Below are positions 42,759-47,848 of a stretch of 64,000 nt of DNA, piece after piece; position 1 is the first letter of the stretch; every line of letters starts with the position of its first letter. The stretch lies in NCBI RefSeq assembly GCF_014701235.1, contig NZ_AP022873.1:682001-746000 (forward strand), read 5' to 3'. This DNA comes from Dissulfurispira thermophila (GTDB lineage Bacteria; Nitrospirota; Thermodesulfovibrionia; Thermodesulfovibrionales; Dissulfurispiraceae). Made by a program: the position numbers and the translations under genes. The notes under the pieces were generated by a model. It did no database searches, was not told the DNA's origin, and saw only the letters and a program-made list of their open reading frames with translations.

Positions 42759-43346
42759 TTACAGTTTCCCCTTTGTTGTGGGCAGGCCTTTTATTTTAGA
42801 ATCAATAGTTACAGCCTGTCGTAATGCCCGTCCCAATCCTTTGAATATTGCCTCGATTATGTGATGGGTATTTCTGCCATAAAGGACATTGATATGAAGT
42901 GTAATGCCACTGTTACTCACAAGTGCCTGAAGAAAGTCCTCTATAAGGTCAGGGTCAAAATCTTTTAGTTTGCTTTTTTTGGGAAATTCGACTTTATATA
43001 CAAGATAAGGTCTGCCGCTGATGTCAAGGCTTACTAATGCAAGTGCCTCATCCATTGGTAAAGATGCCTGTCCATATCTCGATATCCCTTCCATGTCTCC
43101 AAGTGCTTGTTTGATCGCTTTGCCAATGACTATTCCCACATCCTCGACAGTGTGATGATAGTCAATCTCTATGTCACCCTTTGCCTTTAATTTTATGTCG
43201 AATAATCCATGCTTGCACATCAAAGAAAGCATATGGTCTAAAAAAGGAATAGATGTATTTATAGAGTATTTGCCGCTTCCATCGAGATTTATTTCAACTG
43301 CTATATCTGTTTCTTTAGTTTTTCTTGTAATATTAGCTTTTCTCAC
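42759..43346 (-). CDS. hisB: imidazoleglycerol-phosphate dehydratase
   Basis: The 195-residue monofunctional enzyme of histidine synthesis has [25 protein letters not shown] and ...[14 protein letters not shown] with the two HHxxE manganese motifs (HHTVE and HHIIE). It overlaps the hisC stop by 4 bases, so the two are coupled. These two steps are adjacent in the pathway only via HisC acting on the HisB product. Confidence 0.96.
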
Positions 43347-44392
43347 GCCTTTCCTCCGATGGATTTTTTTAATGCCTTTATAAAAAAGTTATTTTCTCCA
43401 TGTGTTCCGATTGTTACTCTTAAGGAGTCTTTGACAACACTGCTTAAGTTTCTGACCAAAACACCATTTTTTATAAGCTTCTTAAAAACTATATCTGCAT
43501 TTTTTGTTTTGAACAATATGAAATTTGCCTCAGAAGGATAGGGCGATACATTATTGATTCTACTTAATTCTTCAAACAATCTTTCCCTTTCTGAAGTGAT
43601 ATTTTTTATCTGTGATTCTATGAGCCTCTTGTTTTTGAATGCCTCTAATGCTACTGCCTGTGATAGTGCATTTAGATTAAATGGAAGCCTTACCTTGTTG
43701 ACTTCGTTGATCAGGTCTTTATCTGCTAATAGGAAACCAACTCTTAATCCCGCAAAACCTATTTTACTTAAAGTCCTTAGTATTGCAAGATTTCTGTAAT
43801 CTTTCAGTAATGGTAAAAAGCCTTTGTCGCTCGAGAATGGCTGATATGCCTCATCTGCAATTACAATGCCTTTAGATGTCTCTATGATTTTCAATATTCG
43901 TTCAGCAGAAAAACAGTTTCCTGTCGGATTATTTGGCGAGCTTAAAAATATGAGTTTGGGGTTGTATTTTTTTATAGCAGCAAGCATGTTATCTATATCG
44001 AGGTCAAAATCTTCATTTAGAGGGATCTCAATATTTTTCTCTCCCAATGCCTGTGAGATGATGCCATACATAGAGAATGTGGGTATGGGATAAAGCACAG
44101 GCCCGCCAAATGCTGTAATTAAATAATAGATTAATTCATCAGAGCCATTCCCTAAAAGTATATTGGCAGAATTAACCTTAAGTGCCATTGAAATAGCTTT
44201 TTTTAATTTCACGGCTTCAGGGTCAGGATAGCGGTTAATCCTCTGGAGGATTTTTTTGTCAGGCGTAATATCAATGCAATACGGGCTTTCATTGGCATCA
44301 AGCTTTACTCTGCATGGGATCTCTTTTGTCTCATATGGTCTGAGAGAGCGTATGTTTGATTTTACAAGCTTTAAGAAATCAATGTCTTTCAT
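43343..44392 (-). CDS. hisC: histidinol-phosphate aminotransferase
   Basis: A PLP fold-type I aminotransferase of ~349 residues converting imidazole-acetol phosphate to histidinol phosphate. Visible features are [47 protein letters not shown] and [16 protein letters not shown] with the PLP-lysine. ATG 44392 gives the usual N-terminus ([21 protein letters not shown]); a start at 44470 would run through the divergent promoter. No Shine-Dalgarno is seen and the -10 box ends 7 bases before the ATG, so the mRNA is probably leaderless. Confidence 0.94.
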
Positions 44393-44399
44393 GCTTTTT

Positions 44400-44450
44400 A
44401 TAATAAATGGACAGGAGATTGTTGTCAATGTCTTGCTCGTGGGGTATAAT
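44400..44450. promoter_or_regulatory. divergent hisC / IMPase promoters sharing one -35
   Basis: Rightward: TTGTCA 44422-44427, 17-base spacer, TATAAT 44445-44450, ATG 44456. Leftward: TTGACA (plus 44423-44428), 17-base spacer, TATTAT (plus 44400-44405), ATG 44392. The two -35 hexamers overlap by 5 bases, and both start codons lie 5-7 bases beyond their -10 boxes, with no Shine-Dalgarno on either side. Confidence 0.7.
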
Positions 44451-44455
44451 GAATC

Positions 44456-45244
44456 ATGAAGGTTGAACATTTAAGACATATTGGCAAACAGCTTTTTGCT
44501 GAAATAGGTAAAACAAGGCTGAAGCCATTTACCTCTGAATCGCTTGGAAAAGGTGCTGGTGGGGACAGGACATTTCCTATTGATAAAAAGGCTGAAGACA
44601 TTATTATATCTTCACTCCAGTCCCTCAATGAACCATTAAGCATAATTTCTGAAGAGGCGGGACTTGAGGAGATAAAAGGCGGTGGCAGAAAAGTATTGAT
44701 AGACCCGATAGACGGTAGCAAAAACGCTATCACAGGAATACCATTTTACTGCACATCAATTGCAGTTAGTGATGGCGATAGCATTGGCAGCATCTTTATG
44801 GGATATGTAATAAATCTTCTTACTGGTGACGAATTCTGGGCAGAAAAGGGTAAGGGTGCATTTTTTAATGGTGAAAGGATTTATACACAGAAGGATGATA
44901 TTTTTTATCTCATAGCATATGAGGCTCAGAGTCCTAAGAACGATATTCCGAAGATTATGAAACTACTTGCAGAGGCATGGAGAACAAGGTGTTGGGGAGC
45001 AATGGCATTGGATATTTCATATCTCGCATATGGTGCTGTAAGTGTATTCGTTACGCCTTCTTTATCACGGAGTTTTGATTTTGCATCAGGCTATTTGCTC
45101 GTGGAAGAGGCTGGAGGTGTATTTACTGATATAAACGGTAAATCGATAGATAGTGTCGAAATAGGGCTTAAAAGAAGCGCTCCACTCCTCGCATCAGGAA
45201 ATAAGCAGCTTCATGAAAAGGCATTGAAGTTGCTCAATATGTAA
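44456..45244 (+). CDS. inositol-monophosphatase-like phosphatase
   Basis: The 262-residue protein has the IMPase metal motifs: IISEEAGLEE and DPIDGSKNAITGIPFYCTSIAV (D-P-I-D-G-S), and WGAMALDISYLAYGAVSVFV in place of the usual WDxAAG block, with FASGYLLVEEAGGVFTD later. Family members remove phosphate from inositol phosphates, fructose-1,6-bisphosphate, PAP or histidinol phosphate. Because it is divergent from hisC with a shared promoter region and no histidinol phosphatase is in view, a HisN role is a reasonable but untested idea. Archaeal-type FBPase/IMPase is the alternative. Confidence 0.85.
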   Translation: MKVEHLRHIGKQLFAEIGKTRLKPFTSESLGKGAGGDRTFPIDKKAEDIIISSLQSLNEPLSIISEEAGLEEIKGGGRKVLIDPIDGSKNAITGIPFYCTSIAVSDGDSIGSIFMGYVINLLTGDEFWAEKGKGAFFNGERIYTQKDDIFYLIAYEAQSPKNDIPKIMKLLAEAWRTRCWGAMALDISYLAYGAVSVFVTPSLSRSFDFASGYLLVEEAGGVFTDINGKSIDSVEIGLKRSAPLLASGNKQLHEKALKLLNM

Positions 45245-45250
45245 AGAAAA

Positions 45251-47848
45251 ATGGATGCTATCCCCTCAATTTTCTGCTCTTCTGTAGAAAAAAATAAGAA
45301 TCGAATTGTATTCAATTATTTTGAAGACTCATGGAAGGCGATGACTTATGGCGAGTTTTACGCCCTTGCAAATAACATCGCCTCTTTCCTTATCAGCAAT
45401 GGGATATACAAAGGTGACAGGATTGCCATAGTTTCAGAAAACAGACCTGAATGGTGTGCATCATATATGGCAATACTCATGTGCGGAGGAATTGCAATCC
45501 CAATAGATATGCAGTTGGGCAGTGATGAGATTAAAAATCTGCTTGTTGATTCAGAAACTAAGATCATATTTTATAGTTCCATGACCGGGGCGAATGTTTT
45601 GAAGGCAATAGAGGGAATTGATATAAAAGGAATAAATCTTGATACCACTCCCTTTACTCACTCACACATTCACTCATTTGTCTGTTCATCTGCTAGTCCT
45701 GATGATATTGCCTCTATCATTTATACATCAGGCACGACAGGCAAACCAAAGGGAGTGATGCTCACACATAAGAATTTCTGCTCTAATGCTGATGCTGTCA
45801 TTCAGGCAAAGGTGGTCACGCATGATGATAATGTCCTTTCAATACTTCCGCTTCACCATACATATCCTTTTATGTGTACATTTCTTGTTCCTCTTTTTGC
45901 AGGTGCTGCCATTACTTTTACGCCAGGTCTAAAGGCAGCAGACCTTGTATCTGCTATAAAAGACAAGAATGTGACTATTGTGGTTGCTGTGCCAAGACTT
46001 CTTGAGATAATAAGGGATGGGATTTTTTTGAAGATAAAGGGAAAAAAGATTTTCTCGAGGATTATTTTATGGATGATGAAATTGTGTGGAATTGCGAGGA
46101 TGAAGTTTGGCATTAACATGGGAAAAGCTGTATTCAAATCCATACATGAGAGATTTGGCAAATTGAAATTTTTTGCAAGTGGAGGTGCAAGGCTTGAGCC
46201 ATCTGTGATGAAAGACCTCGAGGCTATCGGCTTTACAGTTTTAGAAGGGTATGGTCTTACAGAGACATCTCCTATTGTTACATTCAATCCACCTGACAAA
46301 AGAAAGATAGGATCTACAGGAAGACCATTATTTAATGTTGATATAAAGATAGGTGATGACGGCGAGATAATGGTTAGAGGACCCATGGTTATGAAGGGCT
46401 ATTACAGGAATCAGACTGCTACCGCTGATGCTATAAGAGATGGATGGCTTTTGACAGGCGATACAGGGTATCTTGATAAAGACGGCTATCTATTTATAAC
46501 AGGACGAAAAAAAGAGGTAATAGTTTTGAGTTCAGGGAAAAATGTTTATCCAGAGGATGTAGAGGCTTTTTATACATCTATTCCTCTTATAAAAGAGATA
46601 TGTATTACAGAATTAGAAGGACAACTCCATGCAGTGGTAGTCCCTGATTTTGAATATGCCAGAAAATATTTGATAGGCAATATATCAGAGGCATTAAAGT
46701 GGGAAATAAATGAGGTTTCCATGAAACTGCCTGAATATATGAGAATCAAGGGCTATACTGTTTATTCTGGACAGTTGCCTCGCACTGCACTTGGTAAAAT
46801 CAAGAGGTTTGTAATAAAGGACATATTAAAGACTGAAGTTAAGGAGAGAGAAAGGGGTGAAGATAAGACTCTATTAAAAGACGAAGTCAGCAGAAGGATT
46901 GTTGATTGCATAAAGGCAGTTATGACCGAGCCTATTATGATTCAATCATCTGATAACCTCGAGCTTGATCTTGGATTTGATTCATTAAAAAGGATAGAAC
47001 TTATATCATCGCTTGAATCTGCTTTTTCTGTCAGCCTCCCAGAGACATTTGCAGCAGAAGTTCAGACAGTAGATGATATAATCATAAGGCTTAAAGAACT
47101 GGTATCAAGGGAAGGAATAAGGGGGGGTGGTCTTGTATCGTGGAAAGACATACTCGAAAAAGAGCTGCTCAAGGAAGACAGAGAAAAGATTGGTTTTTAT
47201 TATAATAAGTGGGAGCTTTTAATAACATATATCGTTCGCCTTATACAGGTAATTTTATTTAAGCTTATCTTTAAGCTTCAAGTGTATGGGAAAGAGCATA
47301 TCCCTGATAAATGTCCTTTTATCATAGCACCGAATCATGTGAGCTTTCTCGATGGCTTTGTGATTGCATCTTCTGTTCCTTATAAGACATTTAATGACCT
47401 CTATTTTTTGGGTTTTCAGAAATATTTTACAGGAAGATTCAGGTCATGGTTTGCAAAGATAGCTCATGTCATTCCAATAGACCCTGAGATATATCTAAAC
47501 AAGGCTATGCAGATGTCAGCACATGTTTTAAAGAATAAAAAGGCATTGTGCATATTTCCTGAGGGTGGCCGTTCATTTGATGGAAGGCTGATGGAATTCA
47601 AAAAGGGCATAGGGGTGCTTGCTGTAGAAATGGGCATATCTGTTGTGCCTGTATTTATAAAAGGGACATTTAAGGCACTGCCGCGAGGTGCTAAATTTAT
47701 AAGGCCGTCTAAAATAAATGTAACTTTTGGGCATCCATTGAATGTATCAGATATCAATATGCAGAGGAGACCTGATGGCGTTGATGAATATCAGTATTTT
47801 GCACAGGAACTGAGAAAGAGGGTGATTATGCTATCAGAAAATAGCTAA
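45251..47848 (+). CDS. acyl-activating enzyme - acyl carrier protein - acyltransferase fusion
   Basis: The 865-residue protein has three parts: an AMP-binding long-chain acyl-CoA/ACP synthetase domain (~1-530; P-loop YTSGTTGKPKG near 157, GYGLTETSP, TGDTGYLDKDGYLFITGRKK); a phosphopantetheine carrier domain (~550-620; LDLGFDSLKRIEL, Ser near 575); and a PlsC-type acyltransferase (~660-865; PNHVSFLDGF with H-x4-D, FPEGGRSFDG). It could activate a fatty acid, hold it on its own carrier and transfer it to a lysophospholipid or glycerol phosphate, like Aas with a built-in ACP. It starts 6 bases after the IMPase stop. Confidence 0.9.
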   Translation: MDAIPSIFCSSVEKNKNRIVFNYFEDSWKAMTYGEFYALANNIASFLISNGIYKGDRIAIVSENRPEWCASYMAILMCGGIAIPIDMQLGSDEIKNLLVDSETKIIFYSSMTGANVLKAIEGIDIKGINLDTTPFTHSHIHSFVCSSASPDDIASIIYTSGTTGKPKGVMLTHKNFCSNADAVIQAKVVTHDDNVLSILPLHHTYPFMCTFLVPLFAGAAITFTPGLKAADLVSAIKDKNVTIVVAVPRLLEIIRDGIFLKIKGKKIFSRIILWMMKLCGIARMKFGINMGKAVFKSIHERFGKLKFFASGGARLEPSVMKDLEAIGFTVLEGYGLTETSPIVTFNPPDKRKIGSTGRPLFNVDIKIGDDGEIMVRGPMVMKGYYRNQTATADAIRDGWLLTGDTGYLDKDGYLFITGRKKEVIVLSSGKNVYPEDVEAFYTSIPLIKEICITELEGQLHAVVVPDFEYARKYLIGNISEALKWEINEVSMKLPEYMRIKGYTVYSGQLPRTALGKIKRFVIKDILKTEVKERERGEDKTLLKDEVSRRIVDCIKAVMTEPIMIQSSDNLELDLGFDSLKRIELISSLESAFSVSLPETFAAEVQTVDDIIIRLKELVSREGIRGGGLVSWKDILEKELLKEDREKIGFYYNKWELLITYIVRLIQVILFKLIFKLQVYGKEHIPDKCPFIIAPNHVSFLDGFVIASSVPYKTFNDLYFLGFQKYFTGRFRSWFAKIAHVIPIDPEIYLNKAMQMSAHVLKNKKALCIFPEGGRSFDGRLMEFKKGIGVLAVEMGISVVPVFIKGTFKALPRGAKFIRPSKINVTFGHPLNVSDINMQRRPDGVDEYQYFAQELRKRVIMLSENS

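What the first reader, a model, noticed from the sequence alone, without database searches (positions are those of the whole stretch)
44392..44458. hisC and the IMPase gene driven by mirror-image promoters sharing one -35 and with leaderless starts
TTGTCAA reads as TTGTCA rightward and TTGACA leftward; both 17-base spacers lead to TATAAT and TATTAT, and both ATGs lie where transcription should begin. Only one polymerase could bind at a time, linking histidine aminotransfer to a phosphatase that might be the missing histidinol phosphatase.
Basis: partly seen in the sequence, partly recalled or inferred. Interest (0 to 1): 0.6.

Follow-up and report, generated by a model that had tools for sequence, protein, structure and literature searches.

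The report
Two back-to-back promoters sharing one -35
In a group of uncultured Nitrospirota bacteria, a histidine-making gene and a sugar-phosphatase-like gene point away from each other and appear to be switched on from one shared, mirror-image docking site for RNA polymerase, an arrangement kept in two families; the idea that the phosphatase is the missing histidine-pathway enzyme is not supported.

Summary
The promoter observation is right; the metabolic interpretation is not supported. TTGTCAA (44422-44428) serves as -35 in both directions, with 17-nt spacers to TATAAT (rightward) and TATTAT (leftward). They are the two best sigma70 matches in 10 kb (11/12 each) and the only shared -35 with both sides at 10/12 or better in 464 kb of this genome (0-2 in simulations; none at 11/12). 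In relatives, all 16 hisC/IMPase pairs with short gaps, from two Nitrospirota families (IMPase identity down to 45%), hold exactly one TTGTCAA, a perfect TATAAT 17-18 nt to the right, and a -10 on the left. Both starts look leaderless. Where the pair is broken, hisC keeps TTGACAA plus its -10 (9/9), so the -35 belongs to hisC and IMPase borrows its back side. The IMPase is probably not the missing histidinol phosphatase: it lacks HisN motif 5, falls far below the HisN cut-off and resembles archaeal class IV FBPase/IMPase. Three near-complete relatives have hisC but no IMPase, and a PHP-type candidate occurs in 72 of 80 relatives, those three included. No transcription start has been mapped.

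The parts
44422..44428 (.). TTGTCAA, shared -35: TTGTCA for the rightward and TTGACA for the leftward promoter (the two hexamers overlap by 5 bp)
   Evidence: exactly one copy in 16 of 16 short-gap hisC/IMPase pairs from two families
44445..44450 (+). -10 of the IMPase promoter, TATAAT, 17-nt spacer, 5 nt before ATG
   Evidence: TATAAT at 17-18 nt in 16 of 16 pairs
44400..44405 (-). -10 of the hisC promoter, TATTAT, 17-nt spacer, 7 nt before ATG
   Evidence: TATTAT, TATCAT, TATGAT or TAATAT in relatives; kept in 9 of 9 hisC loci without an IMPase neighbour
44390..44392 (-). predicted leaderless start codon of hisC
   Evidence: conserved N-terminus and position relative to the -10 in relatives; no Shine-Dalgarno
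44456..44458 (+). predicted leaderless start codon of the IMPase gene (in-frame stop at 44450-44452 excludes an earlier start)
   Evidence: -10 at 4-10 nt in 11 of 11 paired and 39 of 63 unpaired orthologues, SD-like in 0 and 3
43343..44392 (-). hisC, histidinol-phosphate aminotransferase (349 aa)
   Evidence: TIGR01141 340 bits, cut-off 277
42759..43346 (-). hisB, imidazoleglycerol-phosphate dehydratase, without a phosphatase domain; overlaps the hisC stop, so probably one transcript with hisC
   Evidence: NF002115 292 bits, cut-off 289
44456..45244 (+). IMPase-family phosphatase (262 aa), nearest characterised group: archaeal FBPase/IMPase (class IV)
   Evidence: PF00459 119 bits; NF009321 193 bits, cut-off 264; PDB relatives AF2372, PH1897, MJ0109
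45251..47848 (+). AMP-binding / acyl-carrier / acyltransferase protein, 6 nt after the IMPase stop; probably co-transcribed from the rightward promoter
   Evidence: Pfam PF00501, PF00550, PF01553; directly downstream of IMPase in many relatives, also where hisC is not adjacent

Best explanation
This is a real bidirectional sigma70-type promoter in which the near-palindromic 7-mer TTGWCAA acts as one -35 element for two divergent genes, each read from a -10 placed directly before its start codon, so both mRNAs are leaderless. hisC owns the site: TTGACA faces hisC with a 5/6 -10 (TATTAT), and the IMPase gene uses the reverse face (TTGTCA) with a perfect TATAAT, so that the two promoters balance at 11/12 each. 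Sigma region 4 can occupy the shared -35 in only one orientation at a time, so binding of one polymerase excludes the other (inferred). The most likely role is compact constitutive expression of two housekeeping operons, hisC-hisB and IMPase-acyltransferase, with modest competition, rather than a dedicated metabolic switch. The phosphatase is most likely a sugar- or inositol-phosphate phosphatase of the FBPase/IMPase (class IV) type. Shown by sequence: the elements, their spacing, their conservation and the broken-pair contrasts. Inferred: transcription starts, leaderless translation, mutual exclusion, enzyme substrate.
For: Elements and uniqueness. Conservation in 16 of 16 short-gap pairs chosen by gene distance, not by motif, with all seven bases of TTGTCAA invariant and TATAAT at 17-18 nt in all. 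The pairs span families f1 and f10, which group together in the HisC tree (88/86), consistent with one ancestral origin and several losses. Broken pairs: hisC without an IMPase neighbour keeps TTGACAA and its -10 in 9 of 9 loci, while the back side has lost the -10 in 8 of 9; in L125/L128 the sequence departs from the paired form inside the IMPase spacer, and in L143/L066 the spacer is 13 nt and IMPase lies 175 nt away with another TATAAT. Leaderless: -10 directly before IMPase in 11/11 paired and 39/63 unpaired orthologues, SD-like in 0 and 3; weak genome-wide excess of -10 motifs 5-6 nt before starts. Enzyme; none of four other FBPase families in the genome.
Against: No transcript data exist here; consensus matches are not proof of function. 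The seventh base that creates the mirror is kept in hisC promoters without a partner (9/9), so the symmetry may be a property of this clade's hisC -35 rather than selected for bidirectionality. In four relatives (L049, L050, L054, L060) the left -10 at 17 nt is the weaker TAATAT, with a better match only at 15 nt. The genome also has a probable PPi-dependent phosphofructokinase (L164) that could replace an FBPase, and the IMPase is below the NF009321 cut-off (193 against 264).
Confidence: 0.8

Rival explanations
1. The symmetric 7-mer and its flanks are mainly an operator for a dimeric regulator lying between two promoters; the -35 reading is secondary.
For: An 11-bp near-palindrome CATTGTCAATG is present in several relatives (L044, L046, L053, L054, L060).
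Against: The symmetry does not hold beyond the 7-mer: the window has TGTTGTCAATG, L045 and L059 CGTTGTCAATG, L094 CGTTGTCAATC, and outside TTGTCAA conservation drops except at the -10s. Exactly the seven bases needed for two overlapping -35 hexamers are invariant. In unpaired hisC loci the flanks vary further while TTGACAA stays.
Confidence: 0.1
2. The IMPase-family protein is the missing histidinol phosphatase of the histidine pathway, and the shared promoter co-regulates two consecutive steps.
For: hisB here lacks the phosphatase domain and the genome has no HAD HisB-type hit except a WaaF-GmhB fusion; no PHP protein reaches the TIGR01856 cut-off; the hisC-IMPase neighbourhood is kept in two families. 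The lysine after DPIDGS occurs at the HisN-preferred position.
Against: HisN motif 5 absent in all 79 scored orthologues; TIGR02067 99.7 bits against 275; solved HisN structures rank far below archaeal FBPase/IMPase; G042, G050 and G071 have hisC but no IMPase-family match; a PHP protein over the NF004981 cut-off is present in 72 of 80 relatives including these three and lies near hisC in G078 and G042; most IMPase orthologues of the order are not near hisC.
Confidence: 0.1
3. The two promoters are a chance arrangement with no functional link; each gene just has a near-consensus promoter in a short gap.
For: Loose shared -35s occur at chance frequency; TTGACAA in hisC promoters gives a 5/6 mirror hexamer automatically.
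Against: 17-18 nt spacing to TATAAT kept in 16 of 16 pairs over two families; the -10 on the back side is lost when IMPase is not there (8 of 9).
Confidence: 0.07

Closest known systems
Bidirectional promoters of bacteria (Warman et al. 2021; PMC10268837; PMC12825309)
   Same: Near-symmetry of a sigma70 element lets RNA polymerase bind in either orientation; steric competition possible
   Different: There the shared element is the -10 and start sites lie 7-25 bp apart; here the shared element is the -35 and the predicted starts are about 64 bp apart, both giving mRNAs of housekeeping genes
Leaderless (TA-led) genes with a -10 motif directly before the start codon (PMC3160421, PMC12340547)
   Same: TANNNT about 10-13 bp before the start codon, no Shine-Dalgarno
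   Different: Here with a strong -35 at 17 nt and in both directions from one site; the two papers' main texts do not mention Nitrospirota
Archaeal FBPase/IMPase, class IV (AF2372, MJ0109, PH1897; model NF009321)
   Same: Best-scoring characterised relatives in model and PDB searches; DPIDG motif and metal-binding acidic residues present
   Different: Below the model's cut-off (193 against 264 bits); substrate untested
IMPase-like histidinol phosphatase HisN (TIGR02067; PMC5516325)
   Same: Same superfamily and catalytic core
   Different: Lacks motif 5 (Gly-Asp-aromatic) and scores 99.7 against a cut-off of 275 bits

Membership tests
Bidirectional promoter (Warman/Grainger definition) | divergent start sites 7-25 bp apart with reciprocally overlapping -10 elements | tested here: not met
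   predicted starts about 64 bp apart; the -35, not the -10, is shared (definition)
Bidirectional promoter (Warman/Grainger definition) | one symmetric promoter element recognised in both orientations | tested here: met
   TTGTCAA reads TTGTCA and TTGACA, by sequence only
Leaderless (TA-led) genes | -10 (TANNNT) about 10-13 bp before the start codon and no SD | tested here: met
   first T of the -10 is 11 bp (IMPase) and 13 bp (hisC) before the ATG; conserved
Leaderless (TA-led) genes | mapped 5' end at the start codon | not testable with these tools
   no RNA data
HisN (IMPase-type histidinol phosphatase) | TIGR02067 score over the curated cut-off | tested here: not met
   99.7 against 275.15 bits
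HisN (IMPase-type histidinol phosphatase) | motif 5: Gly followed by Asp (or Glu) and aromatic residues | tested here: not met
   A, S or T follows the Gly in 79 of 79 scored sequences; no G[DE]-aromatic motif in any (criterion)
HisN (IMPase-type histidinol phosphatase) | activity on histidinol phosphate | not testable with these tools
   needs enzyme assay
FBPase/IMPase class IV | NF009321 score over the curated cut-off | tested here: not met
   192.9 against 264 bits, although it is the best-scoring model
FBPase/IMPase class IV | catalytic motifs (EE, DPIDG[ST], distal Asp) and closest similarity to AF2372/MJ0109 | tested here: met
   invariant E66 E67, D83 P84 D86 G87 S88, D208; PDB ranking
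FBPase/IMPase class IV | activity on fructose 1,6-bisphosphate and inositol 1-phosphate | not testable with these tools
   needs enzyme assay; the genome lacks four other FBPase families and inositol-1-phosphate synthase

The most novel reading that the evidence does not exclude
A distinct class of bidirectional promoter exists in which a near-palindromic -35 (TTGWCAA), rather than the -10, is shared, and in this clade it has been kept since the common ancestor of two families as a polymerase-exclusion link between histidine synthesis and a sugar-phosphatase/lipid operon, both expressed as leaderless mRNAs; the free back side of the hisC -35 can also be recruited by other genes (possibly rpsU in G007).
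Probability: 0.25. Interest if true: 0.6.

Novelty: new variant of a known kind. Interest (0 to 1): 0.42.

Why it matters
Known bacterial bidirectional promoters have been defined by shared -10 elements. A conserved case with a shared -35 shows a second geometry, made possible because TTGACAA is nearly its own reverse complement: any promoter with that -35 needs only a -10 about 17 bp behind it to fire backwards. With both start codons at the predicted start sites, a 63-bp gap holds two complete expression signals with no leader. The relatives supply natural promoter dissections (paired, broken inside the spacer, perhaps re-paired with another gene) that make the competition question testable. 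It also corrects a tempting but weak assignment of a histidinol phosphatase, the most common low-confidence step together with homoserine kinase in pathway annotation (28% of 148 prokaryotes in PMC7311316).

Tried and rejected
Operator-only reading: rejected because symmetry stops at the 7-mer. HAD histidinol phosphatase elsewhere: the single TIGR01656 hit over the cut-off is the GmhB part of a WaaF-GmhB fusion. HisJ: no PHP protein reaches TIGR01856. An inositol pathway for the IMPase: no inositol-1-phosphate synthase found. The IMPase as an indispensable FBPase: weakened by a probable PPi-dependent phosphofructokinase. A leader RNA element: no Rfam match at its family's gathering score in 44000-45000, only one chance-level hit. 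A recurrent shared -35 architecture in this genome: not found, loose cases are at chance level. Literature searches for a shared -35 in divergent promoters found no matching paper in the held library; from memory, overlapping -35 regions are known in divergent promoters next to LysR-type regulators, so I do not claim that the geometry is unprecedented.

Full report
Check of the observation. The stretch 44380-44470 reads as described. TTGTCAA at 44422-44428 gives TTGTCA to the right and TTGACA to the left; the spacers are 17 nt each; the -10s are TATAAT (44445-44450) and TATTAT (44405-44400); ATG follows after 5 nt (IMPase, 44456) and 7 nt (hisC, 44392). A consensus scan finds the same two sites as the best of 35 in 10 kb, 11 of 12 matches each, although the total number of sites equals the shuffled expectation (33). 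I sampled 20 stretches of this genome plus the window (464 kb). Overlapping -35 pairs at 9/12 each occur 20 times, within the range of six first-order Markov simulations (9-21); at 10/12 or better there is only this one (0-2 simulated), and at 11/12 none was simulated.

Organism. The window lies in a single 2.37-Mb contig, 100% complete; named relatives are uncultured Nitrospirota, many labelled Thermodesulfovibrionales.

Conservation. I took every relative in hand in which hisC and the IMPase gene diverge with a short gap, chosen by gene distance and not by motif. All 16 (the window included) hold exactly one TTGTCAA; all have a perfect TATAAT 17 (11 cases) or 18 nt (5 cases) to the right; 12 have a 5/6 -10 17-18 nt to the left (TATTAT, TATCAT, TATGAT), and four have TAATAT at 17 nt with a better match at 15 nt. 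IMPase identity to the window falls to about 45% in family f10. In the column statistics of an ungapped alignment only the seven bases of TTGTCAA and one -10 base are invariant; the two -10 regions are next best, and most of the spacer positions are variable. The HisC tree groups f1 and f10 (88/86, moderate support), which fits one origin and several losses; the IMPase tree leaves f10 unresolved on a long branch.

Broken pairs. In nine loci where hisC has no IMPase neighbour in reach, TTGACAA, the leftward -10 and the leaderless spacing remain, while the rightward -10 is gone in eight. In L125 and L128 the sequence departs from that of their paired sister within the IMPase spacer. In L143/L066 the distance from TTGTCA to TATAAT is 13 nt and the IMPase gene lies 175 nt away behind another TATAAT; in L056 a longer gap separates the two promoters. 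In G007 (L139/L202) the back side carries TATACT at 17 nt upstream of an rpsU-like gene, so the free face may have been used by another gene. The -35 therefore belongs to hisC and the IMPase promoter is the guest. Because the seventh base is kept without a partner, the mirror symmetry may have pre-existed the pairing.

Leaderless starts. The IMPase orthologues carry a -10 4-10 nt before the start in 11 of 11 paired and 39 of 63 unpaired loci; SD-like sequences are seen in 0 and 3. Many unpaired orthologues have their own promoter of the form TTGCC...cgTAAAATA directly before the start. In the sampled genome, -10 motifs are in excess at 5-6 nt before starts (25 against a background of roughly 12 for the two positions). 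This supports leaderless expression in the clade; 5' ends are not mapped.

Mechanism. Sigma region 4 can read the 7-mer in one orientation at a time, and the polymerase footprints would overlap strongly, so exclusion is expected (inference). In E. coli bidirectional promoters, weakening one direction had little effect on the other, but strengthening one -35 greatly reduced the opposite transcript (PMC12825309). The present promoters are near consensus, so competition is more likely than in those natural E. coli cases, but its size is unknown, and I see no evidence for a dedicated switch.

The phosphatase. It is the only PF00459 protein of the genome. The best model is NF009321, bifunctional FBPase/IMPase (193 bits, cut-off 264); TIGR02067 HisN gives 99.7 against 275. 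The closest solved structures are AF2372, PH1897 and MJ0109; HisN structures 5yht and 5eq7 score less than half as many bits. The HisN-specific motif 5 (PMC5516325) is absent in all 79 scored orthologues. Three near-complete relatives (G042, G050, G071) have hisC but no IMPase-family match. A PHP protein over the cut-off of NF004981, 'histidinol phosphate phosphatase domain-containing protein', is present in this genome (G000 2204227-2204868) and in 72 of 80 relatives, including those three, and lies within a few kb of hisC in G078 and G042. Its function is a name, not a test. No FBPase of PF00316, PF01950, PF03320 or PF06874 was found, which favours an FBPase role for the IMPase protein, but a probable PPi-dependent phosphofructokinase is present (L164). 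The downstream acyl-ligase/acyltransferase gene is a frequent neighbour of IMPase in family f1 whether or not hisC is there.

Verdict. The promoter finding is real by sequence and conservation, and is a variant of bidirectional promoters with the -35 shared in place of the -10. The metabolic link to a missing histidinol phosphatase is not supported.

Noticed in passing
L169 (G000:C1:480001-500000), 5974 (-) and 6011 (+): Another divergent pair in the same genome in which both ATGs directly follow a -10 (TAAAAT and TATAAT), with start codons only 37 bp apart, so the two promoters would overlap face to face.
   Followed up: no
L202 (G007:C9), back side of the hisC -35: TTGTCA-17-TATACT points at an rpsU-like gene with its own leader, as if the free face of the hisC -35 had been recruited by a different gene.
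   Followed up: partly
L038 (G000:C1:1902498-1902905 and surroundings): Heptosyltransferase (WaaF-like) fused to a GmhB-like phosphatase domain in one 511-aa frame.
   Followed up: partly
L067-L082 and others, upstream of IMPase: A different, highly similar leaderless promoter (TTGCC, about 17 nt, cgTAAAATA, 4-6 nt, start) precedes the IMPase gene in many relatives without hisC next door.
   Followed up: partly
window 45251-47848: Fusion of AMP-binding, phosphopantetheine-binding and acyltransferase domains, 6 nt after the IMPase gene; this neighbourhood also occurs in relatives where hisC is not next to IMPase.
   Followed up: partly
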